Shown one piece after another: positions 41,241-58,713 of a DNA stretch of 59,995 nt. The stretch is from the NCBI GenBank assembly GCA_021739765.1, contig JAIPBD010000025.1, positions 1-59,995 on the forward strand. The letters run 5' to 3'. The notes beneath the pieces are model-generated. The model saw only the letters and a list, made by a program, of their open reading frames with translations, was not told the origin of the DNA and ran no database searches. The stretch's first letter is position 1; each line of letters starts with the position of its first letter. The DNA is from Melioribacteraceae bacterium (GTDB lineage Bacteria > Bacteroidota > Ignavibacteria > Ignavibacteriales > Melioribacteraceae). Both the position numbers and the translations under genes were made by a program.

Positions 41241-42578
41241 ATGTCAAACAATATCTCACGACGAAAATTCATTGGCACCACTAGTTTAGCCGCAACAGCA
41301 TTTACAATTGTTCCAAGGCATGTACTTGGAGGTACCGGTTATAAAGCGCCAAGTGATACACTTAATATCGGTTGCGTTGGAATAGATGGAAAAGGTAAGT
41401 CGGATATTGAAGGAGTAAGTTCGGAGAATATCGCGGCATTATGTGACGTTGATTTAACTCGTGGGATGGAAGCTCGCAAGAACAATCCAAAAGCGAATCA
41501 GTATCAAGATTTTCGGATAATGCTCGATAAAGAAAAAGATTTAGATGCAATAACGATCAGCACCCCCGATCATACTCACGCTGTAATTGCAATGGCAGCA
41601 ATGCAAAGAGGCAAACACGTCTTCGTTCAAAAACCACTTACGAAAACCGTTTATGAGGCTAGAAAATTAGCTGAGACAGCGAAAAAAAATAAGATCATTT
41701 CGCAAATGGGAAATCAAGGGCATGCGGGTGAAGGGGCAAGATTAGTTAATGAATGGATTTGGGATGGAGCAATTGGAGATGTAAACGAAGTACACGCATG
41801 GACAAACAGACCGATTTGGCCGCAAGGTGAAATCGAAAGACCGGAAGAAATTCCATCGGTTCCTACTTCGTTAAATTGGAATTTATGGATCGGTCCTTCA
41901 CCACACAGACCATATCATCCTTCTTACCATCCTTTCAATTGGAGAGGTTTTCGAGATTTTGGAACAGGCTCCTTAGGAGATATGGGCGCTCATATTTTGG
42001 ATCAACCCTTTTGGGCTTTAGATCTTGGCGATTGCAAAACAATTCAAGCTAATTCAACTCGTTTTACCGATGAATCTTATCCTGCGGCATCAGAAGTAAT
42101 TTGGACTTTCGAAGGGAAAAACGGCAAACCTGGAATCAAATTGATTTGGAGAGATGGCGGGATACTTCCTCCCCGTCCTGAAAATATCGAACCCGGAAGA
42201 AAACTTGGTGAGACCGGCGGAGGAGTAATTTATTACGGCTCGAAAGGTGAATTAATGCACGGCGTTTACGGTGAACAACCGAGATTAATTCCTGAAACAT
42301 TTATGCAATCTTATCAAAGACCCGAAAAATCAATTCCACGTTCACCGGGAATCCACCAAGAATGGATTGAGGCTATAAAAAACGGAACAAAAAGTACCAC
42401 CGATTTTGAATATTCGAGTAAATTAACTGAACTTATGTTGTTGGGCAATATTGCTCTGCTAAGTCAAGAGCACAAAACCGTTCTTGAATGGGACGCGAAC
42501 CAATTTAAGTTTACCAATCTTGATGCCGCAAATGAACTATTGCATACGCAGTATTCACCCGGATGGTCATTAGATTAG
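41241..42578 (+). CDS. Tat-exported Gfo/Idh/MocA oxidoreductase, first
   Basis: This 445-residue protein starts with a twin-arginine signal (SRRKFIGTTSLAATAF). A Rossmann domain (about 35-165) precedes the Gfo/Idh/MocA C-terminal sheet domain. NIGCVGIDGKG is the dinucleotide loop. The usual EKP is VQKPLTKT here, so Gln replaces the Glu, a change known among exported members. SLGDMGAHILDQPFW carries the expected His-containing helix. Exported enzymes of this type bind NAD(P) tightly and oxidise sugars or glycosides, often at C3. An alternative is a GH109-like redox glycosidase. GGAAAAGC lies before the ATG. It heads the plus-strand operon. Confidence 0.85.
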   Translation: MSNNISRRKFIGTTSLAATAFTIVPRHVLGGTGYKAPSDTLNIGCVGIDGKGKSDIEGVSSENIAALCDVDLTRGMEARKNNPKANQYQDFRIMLDKEKDLDAITISTPDHTHAVIAMAAMQRGKHVFVQKPLTKTVYEARKLAETAKKNKIISQMGNQGHAGEGARLVNEWIWDGAIGDVNEVHAWTNRPIWPQGEIERPEEIPSVPTSLNWNLWIGPSPHRPYHPSYHPFNWRGFRDFGTGSLGDMGAHILDQPFWALDLGDCKTIQANSTRFTDESYPAASEVIWTFEGKNGKPGIKLIWRDGGILPPRPENIEPGRKLGETGGGVIYYGSKGELMHGVYGEQPRLIPETFMQSYQRPEKSIPRSPGIHQEWIEAIKNGTKSTTDFEYSSKLTELMLLGNIALLSQEHKTVLEWDANQFKFTNLDAANELLHTQYSPGWSLD

Positions 42579-42589
42579 ATTGATATATT

Positions 42590-43930
42590 ATGAATGAAAA
42601 TAAAACCAATTCGATTGATAGAAGAAAATTTATTAAAGTGAGCGCGGCAGTTGGAACCGCTTTATGGGCAACACCATTATTAAACATAAGCGGGAAAAAT
42701 CCTCAAAGTAATGACTTAAATATCGCTCTAATCGGAACCGGAGCTCAAGGACAAGTCTTAATAAATGCTTGTTTGAAAATCCCCAATATTCGATTTAAAG
42801 CGGTTTGCGATATTTGGACAGACTACAACCAAAAAAGAGCCTATCGATTACTTAAAAAGTACGGTCACGATTTAAACGCTTATGTCGATTATCGCGAGAT
42901 GCTGGCAAAAGAAAAAGATTTGGATGCCGTAATTGTGGCGACACCGGATTTCTGGCATGCTCAGCACGCCGTTGATTGTATGGAAGCCGGCTTGCATGTT
43001 TACTGCGAAAAAGAAATGTCTAACACGCTTGAAGGCGCAAAAAAAATTGTACGGGCTGCAAAACGAACGGGAAAACTTGTTCAAATCGGGCATCAAAGAA
43101 GAAGCAATCCTAACTATTTACACTGCTATAATAACATTGTTAACAACTCGGGAATATTGGGAAAAATTACCACGATTAACGGACAATGGAATCGTTCCGT
43201 TCAACCGGATAATGGCTGGCCTAAAAATTATGAAATCCCGCTCCAAACATTGCATAAGTTTGGATTTGATAATATGCACCAACACCGAAATTGGAGATGG
43301 TATAGAAATCTGGGAGGCGGACCGATTGTTGATCTGGGTTCACACCAAATTGATATCTACAATTGGTTTCTTGGCGCAACTCCTAAATCAGTTATGGCAA
43401 GCGGCGGAACAGATTATTACGAAAATTCGACTCACGAATGGTACGATACGGTCCTTGCAACATACAAATATCAGACTGAGCATGGAGTTGTAAGGGCATT
43501 TTATCAAACGATAACAACGAACAGCAATCAAGGTTATTACGAAAGTTTTCTTGGAGATCAAGGGTCTTTGGTAATATCCGAATCTGCCGGACGAGCAGGT
43601 ATCTACAGAGAACCGGCTGCACCAAGCTGGGAAAAGTGGATCGAAAAAGGAATAATTGAATCCCCCTCAGAGCCGGTCGCTGCTAAACCGACCGCGGTTT
43701 TGGACGTGAGGGAAACAGTCGCACCCCCGAAACATTCTTTACCGATTTCGTTTAATGATCCTTACCATAAACCACATTTAGAAAATTTCTTCAATTCTAT
43801 TCGTGGAACGGAAAAACTTAATTGCCCTGTCGAGGTCGGTTATGAATCCGCGGTAACGGTATTAAAAGTAAATGAAGCCGTAAAAGCGAAAAGAGAAATA
43901 AAGTTTAAACCAAGCGATTTTGTTATTTAG
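42590..43930 (+). CDS. Tat-exported Gfo/Idh/MocA oxidoreductase, second
   Basis: This 446-residue protein has a twin-arginine signal (DRRKFIKVSAAVGTAL), a Rossmann domain with IALIGTGAQGQVL, and a C-terminal catalytic domain. The catalytic loop reads YCEKEMSNT, where Glu replaces the Pro of EKP. GGGPIVDLGSHQIDIYNW holds the His-containing helix. It starts 11 bp after the first exported oxidoreductase and differs strongly from it, so this is not a recent duplication. Together they may form a hetero-oligomer or act on successive substrates, which is inference. The stop overlaps the region just before the cytochrome gene by one base if the cytochrome starts at GTG 43930. Confidence 0.85.
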   Translation: MNENKTNSIDRRKFIKVSAAVGTALWATPLLNISGKNPQSNDLNIALIGTGAQGQVLINACLKIPNIRFKAVCDIWTDYNQKRAYRLLKKYGHDLNAYVDYREMLAKEKDLDAVIVATPDFWHAQHAVDCMEAGLHVYCEKEMSNTLEGAKKIVRAAKRTGKLVQIGHQRRSNPNYLHCYNNIVNNSGILGKITTINGQWNRSVQPDNGWPKNYEIPLQTLHKFGFDNMHQHRNWRWYRNLGGGPIVDLGSHQIDIYNWFLGATPKSVMASGGTDYYENSTHEWYDTVLATYKYQTEHGVVRAFYQTITTNSNQGYYESFLGDQGSLVISESAGRAGIYREPAAPSWEKWIEKGIIESPSEPVAAKPTAVLDVRETVAPPKHSLPISFNDPYHKPHLENFFNSIRGTEKLNCPVEVGYESAVTVLKVNEAVKAKREIKFKPSDFVI

Positions 43931-43941
43931 TGTTGCGATCT

Positions 43942-45918
43942 ATGTTTAAATCCCCAAAAACATTTTTGTGTATTCTGATTCTCTTTTTACTTTTTCCCGA
44001 AATTTCAAAATCTCAAACTTCGGACTCAATTTCCAATCAATCAGATTCCCTTGCAATTGACTCAACAAAAACAATAACAGAAGTAATTGAATATAAGATC
44101 GGTGATATCAGCGACGGAAATAAATCCGTACCGGTTCATCTGATTAAATTATACGATTATAATGGTTTTTCAATTCACAAGAATGATGAATTTAAAATTC
44201 CCTTTTCAATCAAGAATACTTGCGGTGACTGCCATACTTACGACTTAATTAAAAGCGGCACACATTTTTCAATTGATACAAAAGATTCAACGGCTCGATC
44301 TTCCGAGCCATATTTATACATGAATTATAGGTCATTAACACTGCTTCCGCTTTCATATCGCGGATCGGGAGGAACAATATCACCGGATTCTGTCGGAATG
44401 GCGCCTTTTCAATTTCTTAAATATTTCGGATCACACATAACCGGAGGGAATATTACTGAGAATGAGGAAAAGGAGACGGAAGAGAATTTTTTCCGGTGGC
44501 AGGTTTCGGGTAAATTGGAAATAAATTGTTTTGTCTGCCACGATGCTGATCCCGAATACGATCAAGCTGAATTCGCTAATCAGATTAATCATGAAAATTA
44601 TAAATGGGCAAGCGCGGCGTCAACTTCTCTCGCAAATGTAATTGGATATTCAAGTAAAATGCCGGACAATTACGATCCGTATAATTCTTATACTTACGTT
44701 GATGTCGATCGAAGATCATATCCCGAACCGCAAATAAATTATGACGAAGAAAGATTCGATAACGAAAACAAAGTTTTCTTCGATCTGAAAAAAGATGTGG
44801 ATAATGAATCATGCTTATTTTGTCATACCACAACTGACAACACAACAACCGATAGATTTATAAATGAACAGAAAGATGTTCACATTGCCGCCGGCATGAA
44901 ATGCGTCGACTGCCACAAGAATGATATAAATCATAAAATTATCGAGGGTTACCAAAATGAGTATGCTGATAAAAACAATGAGCATTTAAAGTCGTTCAGT
45001 TGTGAAGGCTGCCATATACAGGCCGAAGAGAGCAGTTTAGCCGGAAGATATGGCGCTCCGAATCCTCTGCATGAAGGTATTCCCGCAATTCATTTTGATA
45101 AGTTGAGCTGCGCAGTTTGTCATTCTTCTTTTATTCCGGAAGAAGAAACAAAAATGGTAAAAACCTCAAGGGCGCATAAACTTGGTGTTCCCGGACCAAA
45201 CAAAATGCCGTTCACATTTCCTCTCATTCAGTCTCCGGTTTACGTTAAAAACGAATCCGGGAAAATCGAACCCCACAATTTGGTTTGGCCATCGTATTGG
45301 GCGAGAAAATTGGGTGAAAAAGTTAGCCCTTTGGAATCATCTTTTGTAAAAGCAAATATTCAACCCTTACTTAAACTGGATACTGTTTCGAATTACGGTG
45401 AATGGCCGGAGATCTCTGAGGAAATTTTACGCCGGACTTTAGATACACTTAATTTGAAAAGTAGCGATGATGAGAAAATTGTATTTATTTCCGGAGGAAA
45501 GATTTTTCAACTGAATGCCGAAAACAGTTTAGAATCTGAATCATCCGAGTTTGCGAATCCTTATACCTGGCCTATTGCCCATAATGTAAGGCCTGCGCAA
45601 CAATCGTTGGGAGTAAAGGGTTGTGATGATTGCCATTCGTTAAATTCGGATTTTTATTCGAGTGAAGTTAAAGTTATTTCATCAATAAATAATCAATCAG
45701 TATCTAAAATTGAAATGACAGAATTTGAAGGATTAAACAAATATTACCAATCAATTTTTTCATTTTCATTTTACTTCAGACCATTTCTAAAACTTGTGCT
45801 CTTATTTTCAACATTCACGATTATTTTAGTTGTCTTCAGTTTCATTCTCTCCGGGACAAAAAGTGTGGCGACTTATTTTCATAATCTTTCCGAACAGCAA
45901 AATGAAGTTGAGAAATAG
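43942..45918 (+). CDS. Membrane-anchored seven-haem cytochrome c
   Basis: This 658-residue exported protein has a signal peptide (about 1-25) and seven CXXCH haem sites at residues about 94, 196, 291, 321, 354, 390 and 560. A C-terminal transmembrane helix lies at about 614-636. The periplasmic part has long insertions between sites 1-2 and 6-7 that match no family I recognise. It should carry electrons on the outer face of the inner membrane. It lies directly behind two Tat-exported oxidoreductases and in front of a membrane protein with helix histidines, which suggests they form one respiratory unit. The start at ATG 43942 is chosen over GTG 43930. Neither has a clear ribosome-binding site. 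Confidence 0.88.
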   Translation: MFKSPKTFLCILILFLLFPEISKSQTSDSISNQSDSLAIDSTKTITEVIEYKIGDISDGNKSVPVHLIKLYDYNGFSIHKNDEFKIPFSIKNTCGDCHTYDLIKSGTHFSIDTKDSTARSSEPYLYMNYRSLTLLPLSYRGSGGTISPDSVGMAPFQFLKYFGSHITGGNITENEEKETEENFFRWQVSGKLEINCFVCHDADPEYDQAEFANQINHENYKWASAASTSLANVIGYSSKMPDNYDPYNSYTYVDVDRRSYPEPQINYDEERFDNENKVFFDLKKDVDNESCLFCHTTTDNTTTDRFINEQKDVHIAAGMKCVDCHKNDINHKIIEGYQNEYADKNNEHLKSFSCEGCHIQAEESSLAGRYGAPNPLHEGIPAIHFDKLSCAVCHSSFIPEEETKMVKTSRAHKLGVPGPNKMPFTFPLIQSPVYVKNESGKIEPHNLVWPSYWARKLGEKVSPLESSFVKANIQPLLKLDTVSNYGEWPEISEEILRRTLDTLNLKSSDDEKIVFISGGKIFQLNAENSLESESSEFANPYTWPIAHNVRPAQQSLGVKGCDDCHSLNSDFYSSEVKVISSINNQSVSKIEMTEFEGLNKYYQSIFSFSFYFRPFLKLVLLFSTFTIILVVFSFILSGTKSVATYFHNLSEQQNEVEK

Positions 45919-46533
45919 ATGATAGCACTTGTAACATTTATAATTGTTCTTTTTACCGGTGCTGTTTTTTTTAGAATGCTTTCAAAACGTGGAATTATAA
46001 TTCAAGAAATAATTGAGACCCTTTTTGGCGGTAATCGTAAAAGTACTAATTCCAATGCCTTTGCAAGGCTAAAATCAAAACTCCTTTCAATTTCTATTAT
46101 TTTATTTTTGCTGATGTTTTTAAGCAGTTTTTTGCCAACTTCAATTTCCGGTGAGTTTCTTCAAGGATTATTTTTGATTATTCATGTAATGATCGCACCT
46201 ATTTTCGCGATTTCCCTATCACTTTTAATATTATTATTTGCCTCAGAATTTAAATTGGGTGAACCGGATTATATACAATTGCGCGAAGTTAAAACGAATT
46301 TTGTTGAGTCTCGAAAAGCGATTATAAAAATTGTTTTTTGGCTGCTTTCGATTACTTCAATTCCGCTGCTAATTTCAATTTTATTAATTCTTTATCCAAT
46401 TTTCGGCACGGATTTACAAGAATTCTATGTTTTGATTCATAGGATTTCCGCCTCAATATTTACTATTTTAGCAATAATATTGCTTTACTTAATAATGCTT
46501 GAAAAAAGTTTAACAAATACCAAAACAAATTAG
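45919..46533 (+). CDS. Small membrane protein, possible b-type cytochrome subunit
   Basis: This 204-residue integral membrane protein has about four to five helices (about 1-20, 52-70, 78-105, 133-160 and 170-195). Histidines lie inside or at the edge of two helices (LIIHVMIAPIF and FYVLIHRISASIF), as expected for a haem-b pair. Its ATG follows the cytochrome stop directly with no gap, so the two are almost certainly coupled. It could pass electrons between the seven-haem cytochrome and the quinone pool. No closer family match was recognised. Confidence 0.7.
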   Translation: MIALVTFIIVLFTGAVFFRMLSKRGIIIQEIIETLFGGNRKSTNSNAFARLKSKLLSISIILFLLMFLSSFLPTSISGEFLQGLFLIIHVMIAPIFAISLSLLILLFASEFKLGEPDYIQLREVKTNFVESRKAIIKIVFWLLSITSIPLLISILLILYPIFGTDLQEFYVLIHRISASIFTILAIILLYLIMLEKSLTNTKTN

Positions 46534-46550: not shown

Positions 46551-47207
46551 ATGTCACTTCGAAAAATTTTTACGATTACATTATTCTCTCTCGCGGCTAT
46601 TTCAATTTCAGCTCAGGATATGGTACCTATCAAAATTGATTTACCTGAACCAATGTTTGTCGGGACTCCGACAAATTTATCAATCCCGAATTTAGAAAAA
46701 CCTTTGGGCGAACCACGTCCGCCATTTTTGGCTCCAAAAGGAACATCCAATATCGCTTTGGGAAAATCGATTTCGAGCACCGATGAGTTTCCCATTATCG
46801 GTGAACTTGAAATGATTACCGATGGCGACAAAGATGCCGATGAAGGATACTTTGTTGAATTGGGGCCATTTACACAGCATGTAACTGTTGATCTCGAAAA
46901 GCAGTACAACATTTATGCGTTGGTAGTTTGGCATTATCACAAACAGCCTCGTGTTTACTTTGATGTAATTGTTCAGATGGCAGACGATCCGGACTTCACA
47001 ACAAACGTAAAAACAATATTTAATAATGATATCGATAATTCCAGCGGACTTGGTAAAGGGTCGGACATGCATTATGTGGAAACTGCCGAAGGCAAACTTA
47101 TTGATGCGAAAGGGGTTAAAGCCCGTTTTGTTCGTCTTTACAGTAAAGGAAATAATAGTAATGACTTAAACCATTATATTGAAGTTGCAGTTTACGGTAA
47201 GGAATAA
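46551..47207 (+). CDS. Exported protein with a discoidin-like (F5/8 type C) domain
   Basis: This 218-residue protein has a signal peptide (1-21, ending ISAQ), a Pro-rich linker (about 30-70: LGEPRPPFLAPKG) and a galactose-binding-like sandwich (about 70-216). NIALGKSISSTDEFP and the closing ARFVRLYSKGNN and IEVAVYGKE are typical of discoidin-type domains. Such domains bind sugars or interact with other proteins. It follows the small membrane protein by 17 bp with AAGG before the ATG. Its place in the cytochrome operon suggests a periplasmic partner that may present substrate. Confidence 0.75.
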   Translation: MSLRKIFTITLFSLAAISISAQDMVPIKIDLPEPMFVGTPTNLSIPNLEKPLGEPRPPFLAPKGTSNIALGKSISSTDEFPIIGELEMITDGDKDADEGYFVELGPFTQHVTVDLEKQYNIYALVVWHYHKQPRVYFDVIVQMADDPDFTTNVKTIFNNDIDNSSGLGKGSDMHYVETAEGKLIDAKGVKARFVRLYSKGNNSNDLNHYIEVAVYGKE

Positions 47208-48759
47208 TTACAAATTCAAATTGAGCAGCGGACAAGTCTTACTTGCCGCTGCTTTTCTCTCCCTCCTTTTTCGGATTTATGGCATTTCCGAAAGACCGCT
47301 TCACACAGACGAAGCGGTTAATTCAATAAAACTTAAATACTTAATTGAAGATGGCGTTTACAAATACGATCCGGTTGAGTACCACGGCCCCACCTTATAT
47401 TATTTTTCACTTATCATTAGTACAATTTCCGGCGTTGAAAAATTCGAAGAAATCAATGAAATCATTCTTCGAGCGGTTCCGGTTTTAATAAGTCTAATTC
47501 TGTTTTGGGTGTTATATCTGGTAAAGGACTCGCTGGAGAAATCAACAATCTACATCTCTACGGTTTTGATTATGGTTTCACCATATTTCAATTTTTACAG
47601 CCGTTATTATATTCACGAAATGCCTTTCGCGGTTATCGCTTTTTTATTAATCGGTAGTTTGTTCAATCAATTCCGTTCTGCAAAAATCAGCTGGTCGGTT
47701 TCAACAGGAGTTTTTGCGGGTTTATTATTTGCAACCAAAGAGACCAGCTTAATTGTGTTCTTCGCTTTATTTGTTGCAATCGTTTCTTTAAGATTTCACA
47801 AAGCTATAAATTTGAAGTTACTGCTCGTTTCACTGACAAGTTTTTTCGTTACAGCAGTAGTTTTCTTCTCCTCCTTTTTTTCAAATTTACAAGGTGCGCT
47901 TCATTCGATTATTGCTCTCGAAAACTATTTCTTTAAATCAGCGATGAATACAGAACACATCCAACCATTCTATTATTATACTAAGCTTTTAAGTTATAAT
48001 TATTTTAAAGGATTGATAATATCCGAGGTTTTTGTACTGATTTTTGCGGTGATTGGAATAATTCTGGTATTTAGAAAAGCGGAACGAAGTCCTAACATTT
48101 TGCTTATAAAATTCATTTCAATCTTTACAATTGTTTATTGGATCATTCTATCGGCGATTCCTTATAAAACACCCTGGAATATTTTAATCGGTTGGATCGG
48201 ATTGTTAATTATTTCGGCTCATGGAATCACCTATACTTATAATTTTATCCGTAGTCGAAATTTGCGCATCGTTTTTACTGTCATTGTGATTACAAACATT
48301 TTCTATTTTGGATTTCAAACATATTTAACGTCATACAAGTATTCATCGGAAAGTGACAATCCATACACATATTCACAACCTACGACTGAGATTTATGAAC
48401 TCACGGGTGAAATTGATAATATTTTGAGGTATGATAATATGTTGCGGATTGCCGTTATTGCTGAGGATAATCAGTACTGGCCTCTTCCGTTCTATTTGAG
48501 AAAAGCTGAAAATGTAGCGTGGAACAGCAGCCCCAATTCTGAATTGTTCAAATTTGATTTAATATTAGCAGAACCAAAATATATTGAAGAAATCACGAAT
48601 ATTCTTTACAATTTGCCGCAACCCGGGAAGATCGATTTGTACGTTCCTTTTACTGAACATGAAATATCAATTCGTCCGGGATTAAAGATGACCTCGTATA
48701 TAAAGCATGATGTTTTAGTCAAATTTAAGAATAGTTCAAATTATATTTATAATGATTAA
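47179..48759 (+). CDS. Agl23-like (TIGR03663) multi-pass membrane glycosyltransferase-type protein
   Basis: This protein of up to 526 residues has about 10-12 transmembrane helices. RPLHTDEAVNSIKL after the first helix and YKYDPVEYHGPTLYYF define the TIGR03663 family, relatives of the GT39/PMT fold. FYSRYYIHEMPF follows in the next loop. Members are named flippase-activity-associated Agl23, and a lipid-linked sugar transferase role is likely but unproven. The start is unclear: TTG 47179 overlaps the previous gene by 29 bp with AAGGA only further downstream, and TTG 47221 is possible. The stop overlaps the ApbE start by 8 bp. Confidence 0.85.
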   Translation: MKLQFTVRNNYKFKLSSGQVLLAAAFLSLLFRIYGISERPLHTDEAVNSIKLKYLIEDGVYKYDPVEYHGPTLYYFSLIISTISGVEKFEEINEIILRAVPVLISLILFWVLYLVKDSLEKSTIYISTVLIMVSPYFNFYSRYYIHEMPFAVIAFLLIGSLFNQFRSAKISWSVSTGVFAGLLFATKETSLIVFFALFVAIVSLRFHKAINLKLLLVSLTSFFVTAVVFFSSFFSNLQGALHSIIALENYFFKSAMNTEHIQPFYYYTKLLSYNYFKGLIISEVFVLIFAVIGIILVFRKAERSPNILLIKFISIFTIVYWIILSAIPYKTPWNILIGWIGLLIISAHGITYTYNFIRSRNLRIVFTVIVITNIFYFGFQTYLTSYKYSSESDNPYTYSQPTTEIYELTGEIDNILRYDNMLRIAVIAEDNQYWPLPFYLRKAENVAWNSSPNSELFKFDLILAEPKYIEEITNILYNLPQPGKIDLYVPFTEHEISIRPGLKMTSYIKHDVLVKFKNSSNYIYND

Positions 48760-51161: not shown

Positions 51162-51185
51162 CAATTAATTTGTGATTGTTAAATA

Positions 51186-52313
51186 TTATAATGAAATCCA
51201 AACATTTCCTTTTGCGTTGGATTCAACAACATTGTGAATAAATTTCATTCCACGAACACCATCCAATACTGTTGGGAATTCACCGTCAAAATACTCCTCG
51301 CCTTTTATACTTTTGGCGGCACCGGTATAAATATTTGCGATGGCTTCGTAAATCCCTTCCGGATGACCCGGGGGCATTGTGTGACTTATTATTCCGAGTT
51401 CTTTCAAATAGGGATTTCCCGGTTTTAATCTTTCGACCGGTTTATTATCGCTCAGTACGAATAAATAGTTCGGGTCTTCTTGACTCCATTTCAAACCAAG
51501 TTTTGAACCATATATTGCGATCGTCAAATTATTTTCTTCTCCCGTAGCGACTTGACTGCTTCGAATGACACCTTTGGTTTCCGCATTAAATCTAAGTAGA
51601 ACTGTTCCGTCTAAATCGAGCTCAACAGAATTGCCTATTTTATTCAAATCGGAAAGAACTTTTGTGGTTTCTAAACCGGTTGTGTATTCAATCAAATTAA
51701 AAGCATGTACTCCGATATCCCCCATACAACTTGAAACTCCTGTAACGTTCGAGTTCAGCCGCCACACCTTTTCTACTTCTCCATTATGCACAATCGGATT
51801 AATCCAACCTTGATAATACTGGGCATCGACTCGTTGGATTTCCCCAATCTCCCCACCGCGTATCATCTCACGCATCTGCCGAACCAAAGGGTATCCAGTA
51901 TAAGTGTGAAGAAGTGCAAACGTAAGACCGGTTTCATCCACAATTTTCTGCAAAGTTTCCGCTTCTTCAACAGTCATCGTCATTGGTTTTTCGCAAATCA
52001 CATGAAATCCATTTTCAAGGCATTTTTTTGCCATTTCGTAATGGAGGAAATTAGGGGTCACAATCGAAACCGCTTCTATTCTTTCACTTTCGGATAGTTG
52101 AAGTTCCCCTTTTATAAATTCATCAATATCCGCATAAGTTCTATTGGAATCGATACCTTCTTTTTGGGCAAATTCTTTTGCGCGCTCAAAATTCACATCA
52201 AAAACTCCGGCAACCAATTCGTAGCGGTTTGAGATCCTTGCCCCTCTCCTATGAGCGTCACCAATAAATGCTCCGATTCCGCCTCCCATTTGAGCTAATC
52301 TAATTTTTTCCAT
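51186..52313 (-). CDS. Cytoplasmic Gfo/Idh/MocA oxidoreductase
   Basis: This 375-residue enzyme has no signal peptide. IRLAQMGGGIGAFIGDAHR is the NAD(P)-binding start. VICEKPMTMT carries the intact EKP lysine, and SCMGDIGVHAFNLIEY holds the catalytic-type Asp and His. It would interconvert a hydroxyl and keto group on a sugar in the cytoplasm, for example reducing a 3-keto-sugar that was imported. The start overlaps the MFS stop by one base (TAATG), so import and reduction are probably co-expressed. The substrate is unknown. Confidence 0.88.
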   Translation of the reverse strand: MEKIRLAQMGGGIGAFIGDAHRRGARISNRYELVAGVFDVNFERAKEFAQKEGIDSNRTYADIDEFIKGELQLSESERIEAVSIVTPNFLHYEMAKKCLENGFHVICEKPMTMTVEEAETLQKIVDETGLTFALLHTYTGYPLVRQMREMIRGGEIGEIQRVDAQYYQGWINPIVHNGEVEKVWRLNSNVTGVSSCMGDIGVHAFNLIEYTTGLETTKVLSDLNKIGNSVELDLDGTVLLRFNAETKGVIRSSQVATGEENNLTIAIYGSKLGLKWSQEDPNYLFVLSDNKPVERLKPGNPYLKELGIISHTMPPGHPEGIYEAIANIYTGAAKSIKGEEYFDGEFPTVLDGVRGMKFIHNVVESNAKGNVWISL

Positions 52314-53488
52314 TATACAGCTACCTTAGATTTTTTTCCAAATTTTGAATAAAGAAAACCGAACAGTAAGATTAAGATTGCAGGTAAAATCGCCATATAT
52401 CTTAATGTTTCCGTTCCCGCGGATCCTGTATCCATAAACACGCCCATAATCGGAAGAACGATTGAAACTGAAAACATTCCCAATCCACCGATAATTGATA
52501 AACCTAAAGCACCGCTTTCCGGAATTTCTTCTGAAACGAATCCTAACATTGTCGGCCAGAAAAAGCATACACCAACTGCGAATACCACAGCGGCAAGATA
52601 AACCGTAACTCCATCAGAATAGCTTAACCAAATTATTCCGATAAAGGACACAATCGCGGAGAACAAAAGCATTCCGGATGTGCTCAATTTATGAACGATA
52701 GGTCCCGCAAATCCTCTTCCAATCGCCATCAATCCGGTTGTAAGTGCTAAAACCAACATTGGAACCGCGTGGGCTTCTTTTAATAAACTGCTGATTCTCT
52801 GTGTTGTCGCAAGTTCTGTCGATGCAGTCAGCAGCATGCAAAAACCCATAAAGAGGAATAGAGGTTTCGCGACAGCTTTCCACATCCCGGCATTTGTTAC
52901 ACCTGAAGTAATTCTTTCGGTTTGAGGAAAAGTTTCTTTAAACATCAAATAGCCATAACCAAAAAGTGGGATATAAAGAATTCCGACGAATAATCTCCAA
53001 TCCAAACCGGAAAGATCTAACATGAAATAGGAAATAACGCTTCCGATAAAAATGCCGCCCGGAAACCAAATATGAAATTTATTTAACATTGTAGTTTTAT
53101 TATTTGGATAAATGGTCGCAACCAACGGATTACAAGCGGCTTCGATTGCGCCATTTCCAATTCCGATGGCCAATGTAGCGAAAAACAGTGACCACATATC
53201 AGTCGCGAATATTGTTAAAGTTATTCCGATAAGATGCAAAATCCAAGCGATGTAAAGTACTTTTTTCATTCCCCAACTATCTACAATTGGACCAAAGATT
53301 ACCATTGCAATTGTAAAACCATAAAATGCCGGTCCGAAAGCATAACCAATATCAGTCGCCGAGAGACCGTAATCATTCATAAATATCGGTTCCAGACTGG
53401 CTCTCAAAGCAAAACTGATTGAAGTTACAATTAGCGCGACACAACTCATTAAAAAGAGTTTTTTTTCATTGAAGTTGGCAGTATTCAT
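52313..53488 (-). CDS. MFS transporter, FHS (fucose permease-like) family
   Basis: This 391-residue inner-membrane protein has about 12 transmembrane helices. GNGAIEAACNPLVATIYP in helix 4-5 and LNKFHIWFPGGIFIG are typical of the fucose/glucose:H+ symporter family. It probably imports a sugar released outside, perhaps a 3-keto-sugar or its product. AAGGA precedes the ATG. It lies 15 bp after the sugar isomerase gene and overlaps the Gfo/Idh/MocA gene by one base. Confidence 0.88.
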   Translation of the reverse strand: MNTANFNEKKLFLMSCVALIVTSISFALRASLEPIFMNDYGLSATDIGYAFGPAFYGFTIAMVIFGPIVDSWGMKKVLYIAWILHLIGITLTIFATDMWSLFFATLAIGIGNGAIEAACNPLVATIYPNNKTTMLNKFHIWFPGGIFIGSVISYFMLDLSGLDWRLFVGILYIPLFGYGYLMFKETFPQTERITSGVTNAGMWKAVAKPLFLFMGFCMLLTASTELATTQRISSLLKEAHAVPMLVLALTTGLMAIGRGFAGPIVHKLSTSGMLLFSAIVSFIGIIWLSYSDGVTVYLAAVVFAVGVCFFWPTMLGFVSEEIPESGALGLSIIGGLGMFSVSIVLPIMGVFMDTGSAGTETLRYMAILPAILILLFGFLYSKFGKKSKVAV

Positions 53489-53503: not shown

Positions 53504-54499
53504 TTAATTATCTTCAAATGCTGAATCGAAACGAATTTCCGACGGAGGGAAATCGATTCGTTTTACAAAATCACAAGCTTCTTTAGCTCCAAATTCTCTA
53601 TCCATTCCGCTATCTTCCCATTCTACAGACAACGGGCCGTTATAATTTATTCTGTTCAGTGCTCTGATAATCTCTTCAAAATTTACTTTGCCTCGTCCCA
53701 AACTTCTGAAATCCCATGCTCTTCTTCGATCCCCAAATTCCGTATGCCCTCCAAAAATTCCGACTTCGGTAGGGACGTCGCTCCACCAAACATCTTTTTT
53801 GTGAACATGAAAAATGCGATCCGCGAACCGATATAGGAATTGGACATAGTCCACACCTTGATACGCAAGATGGCTGGGATCGTAATTAAATCCGAAATTA
53901 GGGTGATTACCAAGAGCTTGAATTGTTCGCCCGGCGGTTGCAATATCAAACGCGATTTCGGTCGGATGAACTTCAAGGGCAAATTTAATATCTAACTTTT
54001 CATATTCATTAATTATAGGCAACCATTGCGCCGCAAATTTCTCATAACCACGCTCGATCATTTCTGGTGTAACCGGTGGGAATGAATACAATAAATGCCA
54101 AATCGGACTGCCGGTGAAACCATTTACAACTTTTACGCCGAGTCTTTTAGCCGCTTCGGCGGTTTTTACCATTTCATCCGCAGCGCGTTTTTGAACATCC
54201 TCCGGAAGCCCATTCCCCCAAACGTAATCCGGTAAAATGCTTTTATGCCGCTCGTCAATATTATCTGAAACGGCTTGACCAACGAGATGATTTGAAATGG
54301 AGAAAAGTTTAAGATCGTACGATTTCAACAATTCAACTTTTTCATCACAATAATTTTGATCAGCTTTGTCTACTTCAAAATGATCTCCCCAGCAGGCAAG
54401 TTCCAATCCGTCGTATCCGAATGATTTGGCTTTTTCACATAAAATTTTTAATGGAAGGTCGGCCCATTGGCCTGTAAATAAAGTAACCGGTCGGGGCAT
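53504..54499 (-). CDS. Cytoplasmic sugar phosphate isomerase/epimerase-type TIM barrel
   Basis: This 331-residue enzyme is a xylose-isomerase/AP-endonuclease-2 barrel with an intact metal set: Glu in ALEVHPTE, Asp and His in [10 protein letters not shown], His in [10 protein letters not shown] and Glu in [24 protein letters not shown] is the second-strand motif. Members of this type isomerise ketoses or open keto-sugars, and related enzymes act as lyases on 3-keto-glycosides. AGGAG lies before the ATG. It sits between the HEAT protein and the MFS gene, 15-21 bp from each, so it belongs to the same operon. Confidence 0.88.
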
Positions 54500-54520: not shown

Positions 54521-56587
54521 TTAATTCGTAACAGTACTTTTTATTAATCTTTTAACTCTCAAGGAAATATCTTCACTGGCAGGATCAGCATCTATCATTT
54601 CCATATATTCCAACGCTTTATTTGGATTCCACCATTTCATATCCGAAAGAATAGCAAGCAAACTAATTTGTGCCTCGGGTTTTAGTTCGGGATCTTTTAA
54701 AAATGTTGAAACAAATTCGGCAGATTCTAAATTATTTATCTCGGCTAACCCGGAAAGAATCATTGTTTTTTCACTTTTATTCTCCGCGTAGTTACTCGCG
54801 GTTTTGTAATAATCAACTATATCATCCGGGAGATTTAATCCATGTGTTTTTAATAAATTTATATAACCCCGCAGAGCGAGAATTTTTAGTACATCATTTT
54901 CAGAGTCTGCGACAATTTCAATTAACCTGTCCAGCGGATCTAAATTCGGCCAATTGTATAAACTAAGAATTGCCGTCTTCTTTACATCGTCATTTTTATC
55001 TGATAAATACTCTTCTATTTTACTAAACGCGTTTTGATCGCCGGTTGCTCCTAAAATCCTCAGCAGCGACATCTCAGTTTCGAAATTATTTGTCTCGTCA
55101 ATTGCCGCTAAAAAATCCTTTGCCCGGTTATTCTTTTCCGGATTCTTTAAAGAAATCCTCGCGAGCGTTGATTCAAATCTTTTTAACTCCCGGGGATCAT
55201 CAATTTGTAAAAAGATTTTTGTAAGAACACCCAAATTTGAAGGTTCAGCGATTGTAGCCAAAGCCGAATACGTTTCAATTCTTAGTTTTTGATTTTCTCC
55301 GGAAGCAATACCGGTAAGCGCTTCGAAACCGCTTTTTATTCTCCGTGTATCAATTGCTCTTATCAGCATAATTGAAGATTCTACACCGGCATCCGGCAAT
55401 AATCGAATCAGTTCTTTATCGACTTTTTCTCCCTTGAGATTATTAATTGCGTCTTGACACGCTGACTTCAAACTAAAATCACCATTCCCGGCGATTTCAA
55501 TCAACAATTCAATATCTTGCTCTGAGCCGATTGCTCCAATCGTTTTTATTGAAGCTTCCCGGACTGTCCCTTCTTTAGTTTTGCATATTCTGCGTACAAG
55601 GCTTTGAAGTTCTATTAATTCAATCTCTGCTGCTTTCAGTAATAATTTTTCCTGCACACCGCTTTCAAATAAATCGAAATTATCCGCCAACATTTTCAAG
55701 TCAGCTAAAAAGATTAAATCTTCAAATTTAGTAAAAACTCCCTGGAGCAGCGAAACATCATTATTTGTAAAAATATTGAGAAGGATAGAATCTCGACCGG
55801 TTTCAGCTGTTGCGATCATCCCGACGAGTGCGGCTTGCTTTTTTGATTTATAAGGGAAGTTGTTATAAACCTCTTCATAAATATCGTTTGCAGATTGAAA
55901 CTCCCCTTCGGATAAAAACTCTCGGGCACAAAGCAAATATGATTCAATAAGCTCCAACCGGATATCTTCCGATAATTCTTTTGAAAATGAGGATTGAATA
56001 ATTTTTGCAGATTCGGTTCCACGAATTTTACCTAATGATTTTGCGGCGGCGAGAGCGATTGATTCATCTTTCAAATAAACAAATTCCTCCAAAATATTTA
56101 GCGCCGATTTGCTTTTCCGGTCACCCAACGAATTTATAATTGCAACTTGAGCGGGAGGTGTAGAATTTGATAACTCATTAATCAATTTATCATTAATGGA
56201 ATCGAAAGGCATTTTATCCAAAGCGTAACGCGCCATATTTATTGTTTTCGGATTTTGGATCATCGAAATCAACACATCAATCGTTTTCTCCGATTTTAAT
56301 TCTGCCAACCTTCGACAAATAAAATCTTTTCCATCCAAAGTCGCGTCAGATTCCAAAATTTTTATCATTTGGTCCGCGAAAACTTCCAAATTCTTTTGTG
56401 AATTTAATGATTCGATCAACAGATCATTAAATTCCATCAATGCAACTCGTTCATCACCAAAATTGTAATTTGAAATTTGGTTTGCTAAGGACTCTAATTT
56501 TTCGGAAAGTTTATCTTCCTGAGAAAATATGGTGAAGGGAGTCACGAGAATAATTGTAACGAGCAGATATTTTCTAATAATTTTCAT
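54521..56587 (-). CDS. Exported HEAT-repeat protein
   Basis: This 688-residue exported protein has a signal peptide (about 1-23, ending TIFSQ). The rest is a superhelix of HEAT/PBS-lyase-type repeats, each about 30-38 residues, such as ALNILEEFVYLKDESIALAAAKSLGKI and DVKKTAILSLYNW. There is no catalytic motif and no CXXCH. HEAT proteins often accompany ThuA, exported Gfo/Idh/MocA and cytochrome genes in glycoside-degrading bacteria, probably as scaffolds. It lies 36 bp after the Tat-exported oxidoreductase and 21 bp before the isomerase gene. Partner and role are unknown. Confidence 0.82.
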   Translation of the reverse strand: MKIIRKYLLVTIILVTPFTIFSQEDKLSEKLESLANQISNYNFGDERVALMEFNDLLIESLNSQKNLEVFADQMIKILESDATLDGKDFICRRLAELKSEKTIDVLISMIQNPKTINMARYALDKMPFDSINDKLINELSNSTPPAQVAIINSLGDRKSKSALNILEEFVYLKDESIALAAAKSLGKIRGTESAKIIQSSFSKELSEDIRLELIESYLLCAREFLSEGEFQSANDIYEEVYNNFPYKSKKQAALVGMIATAETGRDSILLNIFTNNDVSLLQGVFTKFEDLIFLADLKMLADNFDLFESGVQEKLLLKAAEIELIELQSLVRRICKTKEGTVREASIKTIGAIGSEQDIELLIEIAGNGDFSLKSACQDAINNLKGEKVDKELIRLLPDAGVESSIMLIRAIDTRRIKSGFEALTGIASGENQKLRIETYSALATIAEPSNLGVLTKIFLQIDDPRELKRFESTLARISLKNPEKNNRAKDFLAAIDETNNFETEMSLLRILGATGDQNAFSKIEEYLSDKNDDVKKTAILSLYNWPNLDPLDRLIEIVADSENDVLKILALRGYINLLKTHGLNLPDDIVDYYKTASNYAENKSEKTMILSGLAEINNLESAEFVSTFLKDPELKPEAQISLLAILSDMKWWNPNKALEYMEMIDADPASEDISLRVKRLIKSTVTN

Positions 56588-56623: not shown

Positions 56624-57946
56624 CTACAATACCCAGGGTGATCTATAACTGCGGCCAAGCATTGATGACGCAAGTTCATCACCCATAATTTTCTCGGTAT
56701 CCGGATCAAACTTAATTTTTCTTTTAAGCAGCATTGAAATTTGTCCCAAATGACCGGGTGTTGCTGAACGGTGGGCGACTTCCACAGGCGTTAAAGTTTT
56801 GGTTCTGCTTTTTACACAATCCAAAAAATTCTTTGCGTGCCCGGGTGATTTGTAAAGTCGGATATCGTTGGGTCCGTAAATATCCTTCAATAAACTTTTG
56901 GGTGACGCATCCAAAAATCCACGATCAACATGAACCCAACCTTCTTCGCCAAACCATTTCGTTCCTGTTTTTCCGTCACAAATATTCTCGTGGCCACCGG
57001 CAATAATAATTTCGATTCCATTTTTATAAGTACTTTTTACATGAAATTTTGTTGCGGTATTCCATAAACCGGTTTTTGGATATTCCCCGAACGCGTCAAC
57101 TTCTATTGGACCCGTACTATCCAAATCCAAAGCCCAATGCGCGATATCGTTGTGATGCCCGATCCAATCCATTAATTGACCGCCGCCGTAATCGAGATGC
57201 CATCTCCAATTTTTATGAACTCTCGCGGGTGCGTATTGTGCGAATGGTGCCGGCCCCAACCATCGATCATAATCCAAATGGGCGGGTGGTAATATCGGTG
57301 CTTCCTCTCCGCCTGTTCCTTCGAAATCTTTATGACCGAATGGTAATCCTACTTCAACTCTATTCACTTTACCAATTTTACCGTTCCGAACAATTTCACA
57401 AGCAAATCTGAAGTTTGAAATTGATCTTTGCCAGGAACCGGTTTGCCAAATTCTTCCGTAGCGATGAACCGCGTCGCGCATGGCTACACCTTCATTAAAA
57501 CTATGCGATAACGGTTTTTCCGCATAGATATCTTTCCCCGCCTTTGCGGCTGCGATTGCAGGTATCGCATGCCAGTGATCTGGAGTCGAAATTACCACAG
57601 CATCAATATCTTTTCGTGCGAGTAACTCATTAAAATCGTGGTAGGTGGAGCAGTCATTATTCCCGTATTTAGAATTAACCATCTGAACCGCTTCTGTGAG
57701 ATGTTCTTTATCGATATCACAAATCGCAACTACTTGAGCAGAATCTTCATTTAAAAATGATTCAAGATTTGAAGTTCCCATCCAGCCCGCACCAATTATT
57801 CCGATCGTGATTTTATTGCCCGGAGAGATAAATCCATTTCGACCAAGTACATTCGAAGGAATAAAATAAGGCGCTGCCAATAATCCCGCGGCAGCAGTTC
57901 CGGTTTTCTTAATAAAATCTCTTCGTGTAAAACGATTATTTTTCAT
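56624..57946 (-). CDS. Tat-exported Gfo/Idh/MocA oxidoreductase, third
   Basis: This 440-residue protein starts with a twin-arginine signal (TRRDFIKKTGTAAAGLL). ITIGIIGAGWMGTSN is an intact Rossmann loop. IYAEKPLSHS keeps EKP with the catalytic-type lysine, unlike the two exported homologues on the plus strand. GGGQLMDWIGHHNDIAHW has the His-containing helix. Oxidation of a glycoside in the periplasm is likely. It follows ThuA by 23 bp, and ThuA-Gfo/Idh/MocA pairs are known from trehalose 3-keto pathways, where ThuB is the oxidoreductase. The substrate here is unknown. Confidence 0.88.
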   Translation of the reverse strand: MKNNRFTRRDFIKKTGTAAAGLLAAPYFIPSNVLGRNGFISPGNKITIGIIGAGWMGTSNLESFLNEDSAQVVAICDIDKEHLTEAVQMVNSKYGNNDCSTYHDFNELLARKDIDAVVISTPDHWHAIPAIAAAKAGKDIYAEKPLSHSFNEGVAMRDAVHRYGRIWQTGSWQRSISNFRFACEIVRNGKIGKVNRVEVGLPFGHKDFEGTGGEEAPILPPAHLDYDRWLGPAPFAQYAPARVHKNWRWHLDYGGGQLMDWIGHHNDIAHWALDLDSTGPIEVDAFGEYPKTGLWNTATKFHVKSTYKNGIEIIIAGGHENICDGKTGTKWFGEEGWVHVDRGFLDASPKSLLKDIYGPNDIRLYKSPGHAKNFLDCVKSRTKTLTPVEVAHRSATPGHLGQISMLLKRKIKFDPDTEKIMGDELASSMLGRSYRSPWVL

Positions 57947-57969
57947 AAAATTTCCATTTTATCGATGAA

Positions 57970-58713
57970 TTACAATTCGTCCAAGCTCCAGAGAATTCCT
58001 CTTTTTAGAATTGTAAATGTTTCGGTTACTTCAAATTCTTCTACGCTGTGACCAAGTGAACTATAAAAGACCTTCCCTTTTCCATAATATTTTTTCCAAA
58101 CAACAGGCATTACGGTTCCATCAATCCAATCAAAATGTTCACCCGAAAATGTTGTCGTCGCGAGAATTTCTACTGCCGGGTCTACATGCATATAATATTG
58201 TTCAGAGTGTACTTTGAAATCTGTCAGCCCTTGCATAATAGGATCATCCGGGTTCGTGATGTTAACGGAGTAATCAATTTTTCCGCCGGGATGTTCGACC
58301 CATTGCCCGCCGACCAAAAACTGAAAATGAGGATTGTTTCTAAAAGAATCACCCAAACCTCCGTGCCAACCGGCTATTGAGACTCCATTTTTTACAGCTT
58401 TAAGTAATCCTTTTTCTTGCTCGTTGGTGATTGTTGACATGGTGATAACCTGGATAATCAAATCCAATTCAGCCATCAAATTCGAATCCGTGTAAATCTC
58501 TAAATCTGTTGATTGAATAACTTCAAAGCCCTGGGATTCTAACCAGGGTACAACAACGTCTCTAAATTTTTGCGGTTCATGTCCTTCCCAACCACCATAT
58601 ACGAATAATATTTTTTTTGAAGTTTCGCTTTGAGATGCGGAAATATTTTGAAATGATAAAAATACTATTAGAGATAATAGTAGAAGCAGCGTAAATCTGG
58701 ATTTTCGAATCAT
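57970..58713 (-). CDS. Exported ThuA-like protein
   Basis: This 247-residue exported protein has a signal peptide (about 1-28) and one class-I glutamine-amidotransferase-like ThuA domain. ILFVYGGWEGHEPQKF, IAGWHGGLGDSFRNN, HSEQYYMHVD and VFYSSLGHSVEEF are the family's strand motifs. ThuA of rhizobia works on 3-keto-trehalose made by ThuB, and exported homologues are common in polysaccharide degraders. GAGG five bases before ATG 58713 decides the start; a TTG at 58737 is in frame but overlaps another GGAGG. It is the first gene of the long minus-strand operon running to 50406. Confidence 0.88.
   Translation of the reverse strand: MIRKSRFTLLLLLSLIVFLSFQNISASQSETSKKILFVYGGWEGHEPQKFRDVVVPWLESQGFEVIQSTDLEIYTDSNLMAELDLIIQVITMSTITNEQEKGLLKAVKNGVSIAGWHGGLGDSFRNNPHFQFLVGGQWVEHPGGKIDYSVNITNPDDPIMQGLTDFKVHSEQYYMHVDPAVEILATTTFSGEHFDWIDGTVMPVVWKKYYGKGKVFYSSLGHSVEEFEVTETFTILKRGILWSLDEL

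What the first reader, a model, noticed from the sequence alone, without database searches (positions are those of the whole stretch)
41241..58713. Putative oxidative 3-keto-glycoside module wired to a multihaem cytochrome
Two convergent operons encode three Tat-exported and one cytoplasmic Gfo/Idh/MocA enzymes, DUF1080 hydrolases, isomerase barrels, ThuA, a HEAT protein and an FHS transporter. In the plus operon the exported oxidoreductases are followed without break by a seven-CXXCH membrane cytochrome and a membrane protein with helix histidines. DUF1080, ThuA and Gfo/Idh/MocA are known parts of 3-keto-glycoside catabolism. A dedicated periplasmic electron outlet for exported dehydrogenases, beside a mannan locus, would be an unusual combination. 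The coupling is inferred from gene order only.
Basis: partly seen in the sequence, partly recalled or inferred. Interest (0 to 1): 0.78.

Follow-up and report, generated by a model that had tools for sequence, protein, structure and literature searches.

The report
Cytochrome cassette for periplasmic sugar oxidation
A set of neighbouring genes, kept together in distantly related bacteria, appears to let exported sugar-oxidising enzymes pass their electrons through a seven-haem protein into the cell membrane, which would give a known sugar-breakdown route its own respiratory outlet.

Summary
The window carries a Tat-signal Gfo/Idh/MocA enzyme (GFO2), a seven-haem cytochrome (CYT), a b561-like membrane protein (MEM204), a discoidin-like protein (F58), a PMT/Agl23 glycosyltransferase and ApbE, facing a convergent GT2.

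Of 80 family genomes, the same 10 hold GFO2, CYT, F58 and PMT at the thresholds used; 70 hold none. Gene order is unbroken in every same-class relative whose contig reaches. In another lineage, apparently another phylum, CYT is fused to MEM204 and GFO2 is adjacent in 5 of 9 loci. CYT keeps seven haem motifs plus seven further conserved histidines; MEM204 keeps two.

Neighbours are 3-keto-glycoside genes. The BT2158-like GFO1 is a frequent, not universal, companion.

Best reading: a quinone-linked outlet for C3 oxidation of glycosides in the periplasm, working like LacABC but with an NAD(P)-type dehydrogenase.

Not shown: electron transfer, its direction, the substrate, the hydride-to-haem step and ApbE's target. 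No canonical flavinylation site was found. Four of nine distant loci carry CYT with no GFO2 nearby.

The parts
41241..42578 (+). GFO1: Tat-signal Gfo/Idh/MocA enzyme related to BT2158 glycoside 3-dehydrogenase; accessory to the core cassette
   Evidence: NF058561 BT_2158_fam 505 bits, below its 750-bit cut-off; PDB 8tdf 2.3e-104; N-terminus SRRKFIG
42590..43930 (+). GFO2: Tat-signal Gfo/Idh/MocA enzyme, core of the cassette; conserved EKEM and DLGSH motifs (Lys, Asp/His positions of the family, recalled)
   Evidence: PF01408, PF02894; 72-76% identity in 9 other family genomes, the same that hold CYT; alignment of 18
43930..45918 (+). CYT: exported seven-haem c-type cytochrome with C-terminal membrane helix
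   Evidence: 7 CXXCH (CX3CH at the first site in some relatives), plus 7 other conserved His in 22 aligned sequences; Cytochrome_C7 9.4e-8
45919..46533 (+). MEM204: b561-like membrane protein, one invariant His in each of two helices
   Evidence: A1 invariants H89 and H174; 9 of 11 members match PF01292 at E up to 5, best 4.6e-4, window 0.36; fused to CYT in another lineage
46551..47207 (+). F58: exported discoidin (F5/8 type C-like) protein
   Evidence: PF22633 1.5e-5, below cut-off; same 10 of 80 genomes as CYT
47179..48759 (+). PMT/Agl23-type lipid-linked-sugar glycosyltransferase
   Evidence: TIGR03663 150.6 bits, above cut-off; PF13231; same 10 of 80 genomes
48752..49666 (+). ApbE-type FAD:protein FMN transferase without evident signal peptide
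   Evidence: PF02424 3.1e-45; PDB 4xgw 2.7e-20; N-termini read by eye
49650..50375 (-). GT2: polyprenyl-phosphate-sugar synthase-like glycosyltransferase, convergent with ApbE
   Evidence: PF00535 7.8e-20; PDB 5mlz dolichol-P-mannose synthase 9e-13; convergent in 10 of 10 class relatives reached
50406..51164 (-). 3-keto-disaccharide hydrolase (DUF1080)
   Evidence: PF06439 3.2e-40; PDB 4qhz 9.5e-73
51186..52313 (-). cytoplasmic Gfo/Idh/MocA oxidoreductase
   Evidence: PF01408 1.9e-25
52313..53488 (-). MFS transporter
   Evidence: PF07690 4.8e-23
53504..54499 (-). xylose-isomerase-like TIM barrel
   Evidence: PF01261 3.1e-41
54521..56587 (-). HEAT-repeat protein; HEAT proteins beside the cassette in L028-L030 are fused to 3-keto-disaccharide hydrolase domains
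   Evidence: PF13646 9.2e-31; fusions
56624..57946 (-). GFO3: third Tat-signal Gfo/Idh/MocA enzyme
   Evidence: PF19051, PF01408; TIGR01409 Tat signal
57970..58737 (-). ThuA
   Evidence: PF06283 1.1e-43 (scanned as 57970-58713)
39491..40936 (-). isomerase barrel fused to 3-keto-disaccharide hydrolase, divergent from GFO1; outside the given interval
   Evidence: PF01261 and PF06439; relatives near the cassette in 5 of 13 class loci (L016 partial, L017, L020, L021, L029)

Best explanation
The cassette is a quinone-linked electron outlet for exported glycoside dehydrogenases. GFO2, with GFO1 where present, folds in the cytoplasm around NAD(P), is exported by Tat, and oxidises a sugar hydroxyl, most likely at C3, of glycosides released from the adjacent mannan or similar glycans. 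DUF1080 hydrolases split the 3-keto-glycoside; isomerase barrels, the cytoplasmic oxidoreductase and the MFS carrier take up and recycle the products. The hydride left on the bound nicotinamide is passed, through a step not identified (possibly a flavin supplied by ApbE), as single electrons to the seven bis-His haems of CYT, then to a haem b held by MEM204 and to menaquinone. F58 presents the substrate or docks the complex; PMT and GT2 glycosylate an exported component.

Shown: gene order, co-occurrence, the CYT-MEM204 fusion, conserved haem and histidine sites, family assignments. Inferred: electron transfer, its direction, position C3, quinone as partner, and the roles of F58, ApbE, PMT and GT2.
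For: CYT and GFO2 are in the same 10 of 80 family genomes, as are F58 and PMT; the chance for one pair is about 6e-13 if genomes were independent and 1e-7 by genus, and carriers are scattered within genera. GFO2-CYT-MEM204 order is unbroken in all class relatives reached. In another lineage CYT is fused to MEM204 and GFO2 is next to it in 5 of 9 loci. G762, with 34 matches to GFO2 at 1e-8, has one clear GFO2 relative (390 bits against 98 for the next). Seven haem motifs and seven further conserved His fit bis-His electron-transfer haems. MEM204 weakly matches cytochrome b561 in 9 of 11 members. 3-keto-glycoside genes recur beside it, including HEAT-DUF1080 fusions directly upstream of GFO2 in L028-L030 and, in the distant lineage, HEAT, GFO3, isomerase and cytoplasmic Gfo/Idh/MocA genes. 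GFO1 is closest to BT_2158_fam, and BT2158 is described as a periplasmic glycoside 3-dehydrogenase (PMC11300592, passages).
Against: In 4 of 9 distant loci with about 8 kb of flank on each side CYT has no GFO2 nearby (L103, L106, L110, L111); whether those genomes hold GFO2 elsewhere was not searched. A separate DUF1080 gene is seen in only 1 of those 9 loci (L108). No conventional hydride-to-one-electron converter is encoded: no D-x(1-4)-[ST]GA[ST] site in the 17 window proteins scanned; looser [ST]GA[STV] matches in cassette proteins are five, all ending in Val and none conserved, one of them at residue 13 of the window's MEM204. ApbE shows no signal peptide, so it is unlikely to be a usual periplasmic flavinylator. 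Known Gfo/Idh/MocA enzymes pass hydride to a second sugar or free NAD(P), not to haem (recalled). PMT and GT2 are not explained by a purely catabolic reading. The structure models are too poor to help.
Confidence: 0.56

Rival explanations
1. The cassette makes, rather than degrades: GT2 charges polyprenyl phosphate with a sugar, PMT moves it to a protein or lipid outside, and GFO2 with CYT-MEM204 oxidises or epimerises that sugar, with quinone as the electron sink (compare, from recall, DprE1/DprE2 on a lipid-linked sugar).
For: PMT is as strictly tied to CYT as GFO2 is (same 10 of 80), and GT2 is convergent with ApbE in 10 of 10 class loci. PMT is also near in 3 of the 5 distant loci with GFO2 next to CYT (L107-L109); in the other two, L104 and L105, the contig ends within about 1 kb of the last cassette gene. 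GT2 resembles dolichol-P-mannose synthase.
Against: 3-keto-disaccharide hydrolase domains, isomerase barrels, HEAT and transporter genes recur next to the cassette, which fits breakdown.
Confidence: 0.2
2. CYT-MEM204 runs the other way: quinol electrons reach GFO2, which reduces a keto-sugar or other compound in the periplasm as a sink.
For: Direction cannot be read from sequence; CYT matches, weakly, families that contain reductases (TIGR04315 and others).
Against: All seven haems have a candidate second His ligand, so CYT itself shows no free catalytic site. The catabolic neighbours need an oxidised sugar, not a reduced one.
Confidence: 0.12
3. The cytochrome and the oxidoreductases are only co-inherited, as parts of one mobile catabolic island, and do not exchange electrons; CYT serves some other respiratory step.
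For: The cassette is patchy within genera, so it may move as a unit; some distant CYT genes stand without GFO2; a far relative, L032, is fused to a b561 domain, with no match to the window's proteins among its neighbours.
Against: Fixed internal gene order across an apparent phylum boundary with changing flanks, and GFO2 kept unlinked in G762 with no other cassette gene in the 20 kb read around it, argue for need rather than hitch-hiking.
Confidence: 0.12

Closest known systems
BT2157-BT2160 type 3-keto-glycoside pathway of Bacteroides (BT2158 glycoside 3-dehydrogenase, DUF1080 hydrolase BT2157)
   Same: GFO1 is a BT2158-family homologue with a Tat-type signal; DUF1080 hydrolases are nearby.
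   Different: A second exported Gfo/Idh/MocA enzyme and a seven-haem/b cytochrome are added. From recall, the Bacteroides system is described without a cytochrome partner; the primary paper is not held.
LacABC glycoside 3-dehydrogenase of Caulobacter and Bacteroidetes with DUF1080
   Same: A membrane-bound periplasmic lactose 3-dehydrogenase beside a DUF1080 hydrolase (PMC9007349, passages). Its cytochrome c subunit is recalled, not read.
   Different: LacA is a GMC-type flavoprotein (recalled); here the dehydrogenase is Gfo/Idh/MocA and the cytochrome has seven haems and a b-type membrane partner.
Glucose-fructose oxidoreductase (GFOR) of Zymomonas
   Same: A Tat-exported Gfo/Idh/MocA enzyme with tightly bound NADP (recalled); GFO2 matches 1evj at 2.9e-16.
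   Different: GFOR is closed with a second sugar as acceptor and has no cytochrome (recalled).
Multihaem c plus b-type membrane cytochromes such as CbcL, and flavinylation-linked electron transfer clusters
   Same: A c-type multihaem domain joined to a b561-like membrane part; ApbE in the cluster. Flavinylation-associated membrane cytochromes are described in PMC11334425 (passages) and clusters in PMC8238504 (passages).
   Different: The main text of those two papers holds no word beginning 'Gfo'. No FMN-binding domain or canonical acceptor site is seen here. CbcL is recalled, not compared.

Membership tests
BT2158-type glycoside 3-dehydrogenase (GFO1) | Score above the NCBIfam equivalog cut-off (750 bits) | tested here: not met
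   505 bits over residues 6-433: a homologue, not an equivalog by that rule
BT2158-type glycoside 3-dehydrogenase (GFO1) | Closest solved relatives are the 3-keto-glycoside dehydrogenases | tested here: inconclusive
   8tdf 2.3e-104 and 8tdh 3.2e-101; next hit 2.9e-14. That these entries are BT2158-pathway enzymes is recalled; the call names them only as dehydrogenases
BT2158-type glycoside 3-dehydrogenase (GFO1) | Oxidises glycosides at C3 | not testable with these tools
   needs an enzyme assay
Gfo/Idh/MocA (GFO2) | Rossmann and C-terminal domains with the family's Lys and Asp/His positions | tested here: met
   PF01408 and PF02894 over cut-off; EKEM and DLGSH invariant in 18 sequences; their catalytic role is recalled
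LacABC-type cytochrome-coupled glycoside 3-dehydrogenase | GMC flavoprotein catalytic subunit (recalled) | tested here: not met
   no GMC domain in any of the seven plus-operon proteins at E up to 0.01; works like, is not a member
LacABC-type cytochrome-coupled glycoside 3-dehydrogenase | DUF1080 hydrolase encoded nearby | tested here: met
   50406-51164 and 39491-40936; HEAT-DUF1080 upstream of GFO2 in L028-L030
Octahaem tetrathionate reductase family (CYT) | Eight haems and score above TIGR04315 cut-off (375) | tested here: not met
   seven haems; 33.6 bits over 98 residues
Prokaryotic cytochrome b561 (MEM204) | Score above PF01292 gathering cut-off (30.1) | tested here: not met
   window protein 11 bits; 9 of 11 members match at E up to 5, best 4.6e-4
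Prokaryotic cytochrome b561 (MEM204) | Histidine pair in membrane helices able to hold haem b | tested here: met
   two His invariant in 13 class sequences and kept in 12 of 13 rows of the alignment with fusions (L103 lacks the domain); haem content untested
Flavinylation (ApbE-dependent) electron transfer system | ApbE plus an acceptor with a Dxx[ST]GA[ST] site or FMN_bind domain | tested here: not met
   ApbE present; acceptor site not found in 17 window proteins, one hit in a GFO3-like protein of L028; no FMN_bind in the proteins scanned; the rest of the genome was not searched

The most novel reading that the evidence does not exclude
GFO2 is a respiratory dehydrogenase of the Gfo/Idh/MocA superfamily. 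The signal-less ApbE attaches FMN, at a site outside the known motif, to a cassette protein before Tat export; that flavin splits the hydride from bound NAD(P)H into single electrons, which run over seven c haems and one b haem to quinone, so that glycoside C3 oxidation becomes a step of respiration.
Probability: 0.28. Interest if true: 0.86.

Novelty: new variant of a known kind. Interest (0 to 1): 0.7.

Why it matters
How exported NAD(P)-bound sugar dehydrogenases get rid of their electrons is, as far as I know, poorly explained: recycling through a second sugar gives no net oxidation. A conserved cytochrome partner would make net, energy-yielding glycoside oxidation possible outside the cytoplasm, and would put a nicotinamide enzyme at the head of a haem chain, which needs a hydride-to-electron step not yet known here. 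It also gives tentative roles to several uncharacterised genes kept together in distantly related bacteria, and it yields a simple experiment.

Tried and rejected
Plasmid collection: tblastn of CYT gave no match. Named genomes: one scan with CYT gave three loci; L012 and L013 matched only about 130-140 residues and were not followed. Solved structures: no sequence relative of CYT at E up to 1 or of PMT at 0.01. Structure models: MEM204 alone reached mean pLDDT 65.9 with five helices, and its PDB fold search gave nothing at E <= 0.001; CYT with one relative reached 32.7 and was not used further. Promoter-like (27 against 34.5 in shuffles) and terminator-like sites (7 against 6.9) say nothing about operon borders.

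Considered and rejected: CYT as an octahaem tetrathionate or nitrite reductase (seven haems, each with a candidate second His ligand); chance adjacency (co-occurrence and order); GFO1 as the essential partner (G064 has GFO1-like genes without CYT).

Literature: five searches aimed at a published link between Gfo/Idh/MocA or 3-keto-glycoside enzymes and cytochromes showed none in their listings (all hits listed; 15 of 168 and 10 of 13 listed). One search (12 of 63 listed) returned the LacABC paper; some searches were broader. The library is open-access only, slashes cannot be searched, and the main 3-keto-glycoside paper is not held, so absence from print is not established. PMC5615132 (abstract and passages) describes other multihaem clusters in Verrucomicrobia.

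Rows dropped or limits: L021 and L022 (partial) and L093 were left out of the CYT alignment and L031 (partial) out of GFO2; in A1 11 of 13 MEM204 rows were used (L029, L030 left out for doubtful starts); A2 used 10 rows. One search used 11 rows (window and 10 loci) for four proteins; PMT, GT2, MEM204 and GFO1 were not tested there, and the permutation does not correct for shared host phylogeny. In the class-wide searches only the best 3-4 candidates per genome were scored. Signal peptides were judged by eye; one ApbE start (L029) is plainly miscalled.


Full report
OBSERVATION. The plus unit runs with almost no gaps: GFO1 41241-42578, GFO2 42590-43930, CYT 43930-45918, MEM204 45919-46533, F58 46551-47207, PMT 47179-48759, ApbE 48752-49666. 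GT2 (49650-50375, minus) is convergent; beyond it on the minus strand lie DUF1080, a cytoplasmic Gfo/Idh/MocA, MFS, isomerase barrel, HEAT, GFO3 and ThuA. The neighbouring mannan locus is real: three GH26, a GH130, a GH2 mannosidase-like protein, an AGE-type epimerase and an MFS carrier between 3.4 and 34.5 kb.

CO-OCCURRENCE. In 80 genomes of the same family, CYT is found in 10 (E <= 1e-10), GFO2 in 10 (1e-60), F58 in 10 (1e-10) and PMT in 10 (1e-15). They are the same ten: G000, G011, G019, G026, G033, G037, G048, G066, G067, G069. GFO1 is in 10 as well, but not the same ten: it is missing in G048 (68% complete, contig ends in GFO2) and present in G064, which has no CYT. With independent genomes the chance of two identical sets is about 6e-13, and about 1e-7 counted by genus. 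Genomes are not independent, but carriers are scattered: 2 of 12 in genus g9 and 3 of 6 in g33. In the order, 10 of 165 genomes hold CYT; in a phylum sample, 6 of 395; these samples overlap. In 392 genomes of the class, CYT is in 11 and GFO2 in 10 of the same 11; the extra one, G169, is a remote 930-residue cytochrome.

GENE ORDER. I fetched 13 same-class loci with the cassette, besides the window, and read their order. GFO2 is immediately upstream of CYT in 12 of 12 where the contig reaches. MEM204 follows in 12 of 12, F58 in 11 of 11, PMT in 11 of 11, ApbE in 10 of 10, and GT2 is convergent with ApbE in 10 of 10. In G019 the missing GFO2 and GFO1 lie at the end of another contig; in G069 and G033, F58 is on another contig. 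GFO1 lies upstream of GFO2 in 7 of 7 family loci that reach it. In the four loci of other families it is past GT2 in L029 and L031 and not in the fetched stretch in L028 and L030. Pairwise distances of CYT, GFO2, F58 and ApbE in 11 rows correlate at 0.80-0.96; this does not separate shared host ancestry from co-evolution.

ANOTHER LINEAGE. A scan of named genomes gave L011, an uncultured bacterium (isolate RUG10884) with a 29% CYT. Its protein continues into a MEM204-like domain, so the two are one polypeptide there. Its contig begins just upstream, but its genome (G762; 34 matches to GFO2 at 1e-8) has one clear GFO2 relative of 46% identity and 390 bits, the next being 98 bits, with no other cassette gene in the 20 kb read around it. 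A profile of CYT found 11 of 240 genomes in the phylum of G762. The handles shown there are all new, so I take it to be another phylum than the window's, by inference. I fetched nine further loci with flanks and one 3-kb contig. GFO2 is directly upstream of CYT in L104, L105, L107, L108 and L109, 5 of 9; ApbE is close by in the same five and in none of the other four. CYT is a natural fusion with the MEM204 domain in 8 of the 13 rows aligned (L011, L104-L110); the MEM204 profile itself scores above 20 bits in only four of these (L107-L110), the rest being seen in the alignment. L111 has MEM204 as a separate neighbour; none was detected in L103. In L103, L106, L110 and L111 neither GFO2 nor ApbE is found within about 8 kb on each side; L106 and L111 show no sugar genes among the four neighbours of each that were scanned, while L103 has HEAT and GFO3 and L110 has F58, PMT and a GFO1-like gene. 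It limits the claim: the cytochrome pair can occur without adjacent GFO2. Whether those four genomes hold GFO2 elsewhere could not be searched (cap reached).

THE CYTOCHROME UNIT. In 22 aligned CYT sequences the seven C-C-H motifs are invariant; the first is CX3CH in some. Seven further His are conserved: H112, H318, H335, H381, H388 and H551 in 22 of 22 and H70 in 21 with one gap. Seven haems and seven spare His suggest bis-His coordination and electron transfer, not catalysis (inference). MEM204 keeps one His in each of two helices in all 13 class sequences and in the fused forms. 9 of 11 members match PF01292 at E up to 5, best 4.6e-4. So MEM204 probably holds one haem b and joins CYT to the quinone pool (inference).

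THE DEHYDROGENASES. GFO1 is nearest to the BT_2158 family (505 bits, below the 750 cut-off) and to 8tdf/8tdh. BT2158 is described as a periplasmic glycoside 3-dehydrogenase, and its mutant does not grow on trehalose, leucrose or palatinose (PMC11300592, passages). GFO2 forms its own group: its best PDB match is 9m3d at 1.2e-20, and it matches Zymomonas GFOR at 2.9e-16. It keeps EKEM and DLGSH motifs. Its signal is RRxF-type where readable in the class and in L104, L105 and L083; in L107-L109 only one Arg is seen.

PATHWAY CONTEXT. 3-keto-disaccharide hydrolase domains recur beside the cassette. In L028, L029 and L030 the gene directly upstream of GFO2 encodes HEAT repeats fused to two such domains. 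Genes like those of the window's minus strand lie near CYT elsewhere: L107 has HEAT, a ThuA-like protein, GFO3, isomerase barrel and cytoplasmic Gfo/Idh/MocA; L108, L109, L103, L028 and L029 have some of them. A separate DUF1080 gene is seen in 1 of the 9 distant loci (L108). This makes C3 oxidation of glycosides the best guess for the chemistry.

THE GAP. Nicotinamide gives hydride; haem takes single electrons. A flavin would bridge them, and ApbE is in the cassette. But the ApbE proteins show no signal peptide by eye (14 readable starts of 15), and no D-x(1-4)-[ST]GA[ST] site occurs in the 17 window proteins scanned. The acceptor may be non-canonical, may lie elsewhere in the genome, or ApbE may do something else. 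PMT (TIGR03663, 150.6 bits) and GT2 (5mlz-like) suggest that an exported component is glycosylated, or that the redox enzymes act on a glycan made by them; the latter is the main rival.

COMPARISON. The closest working parallel is LacABC, a membrane-bound lactose 3-dehydrogenase that works with DUF1080 proteins (PMC9007349, passages; its cytochrome and GMC subunits are recalled). Here the catalytic subunit is of another superfamily, so it works like LacABC but is not a member. Papers on flavinylation-linked clusters (PMC8238504, PMC11334425; passages) hold no word beginning 'Gfo' in their main text. My searches found no description of this cassette, within the limits told in Tried and rejected.

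VERDICT. A real, conserved unit; a dedicated electron-transfer partner for GFO2 is likely (my estimate about 0.85 for functional coupling, 0.9 for CYT-MEM204 as one unit). That it is an oxidative outlet for C3 oxidation of glycosides is the best single reading (0.56). Flavin involvement is open (about 0.3).

Noticed in passing
window 3398-34465: Mannan utilisation locus: GH26 (3398-6307, 26681-27838, 33323-34465), GH130, GH2 mannosidase-like, AGE-type epimerase, MFS, with Por secretion-tail proteins, a PorV-like and a TonB-type receptor.
   Followed up: partly
L028:11850-15278, L029:12913-16314, L030:4220-7588: HEAT-repeat protein fused to two 3-keto-disaccharide hydrolase domains, directly upstream of GFO2; suggests the window's HEAT protein works with DUF1080 hydrolases.
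   Followed up: partly
L032:5033-7825: 930-residue protein with eight CXXCH and a C-terminal b561 domain, a far relative of CYT in a genome (G169) without a GFO2 match at 1e-60.
   Followed up: partly
L107:7760-8563: A PD-(D/E)XK nuclease-like ORF sits between ApbE and CYT in L107, where L108 has a DUF1080 gene.
   Followed up: no
L019:2842-4740, L020:9052-10896, L021:7330-8517: First haem motif of CYT is CX3CH instead of CX2CH in a subgroup.
   Followed up: no
L019:2842-4740 (G048): The search reported one in-frame TAA in the matched stretch of the G048 copy of CYT; the ORF caller found 632 residues open.
   Followed up: no
window 46551-47207: F58 is among the most conserved proteins of the cassette (71-78% in the family), including a motif MFVGTPTN...LEKPLGxPRxPF ahead of the discoidin part; the N-terminus looks lipoprotein-like in L028-L031.
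   Followed up: partly
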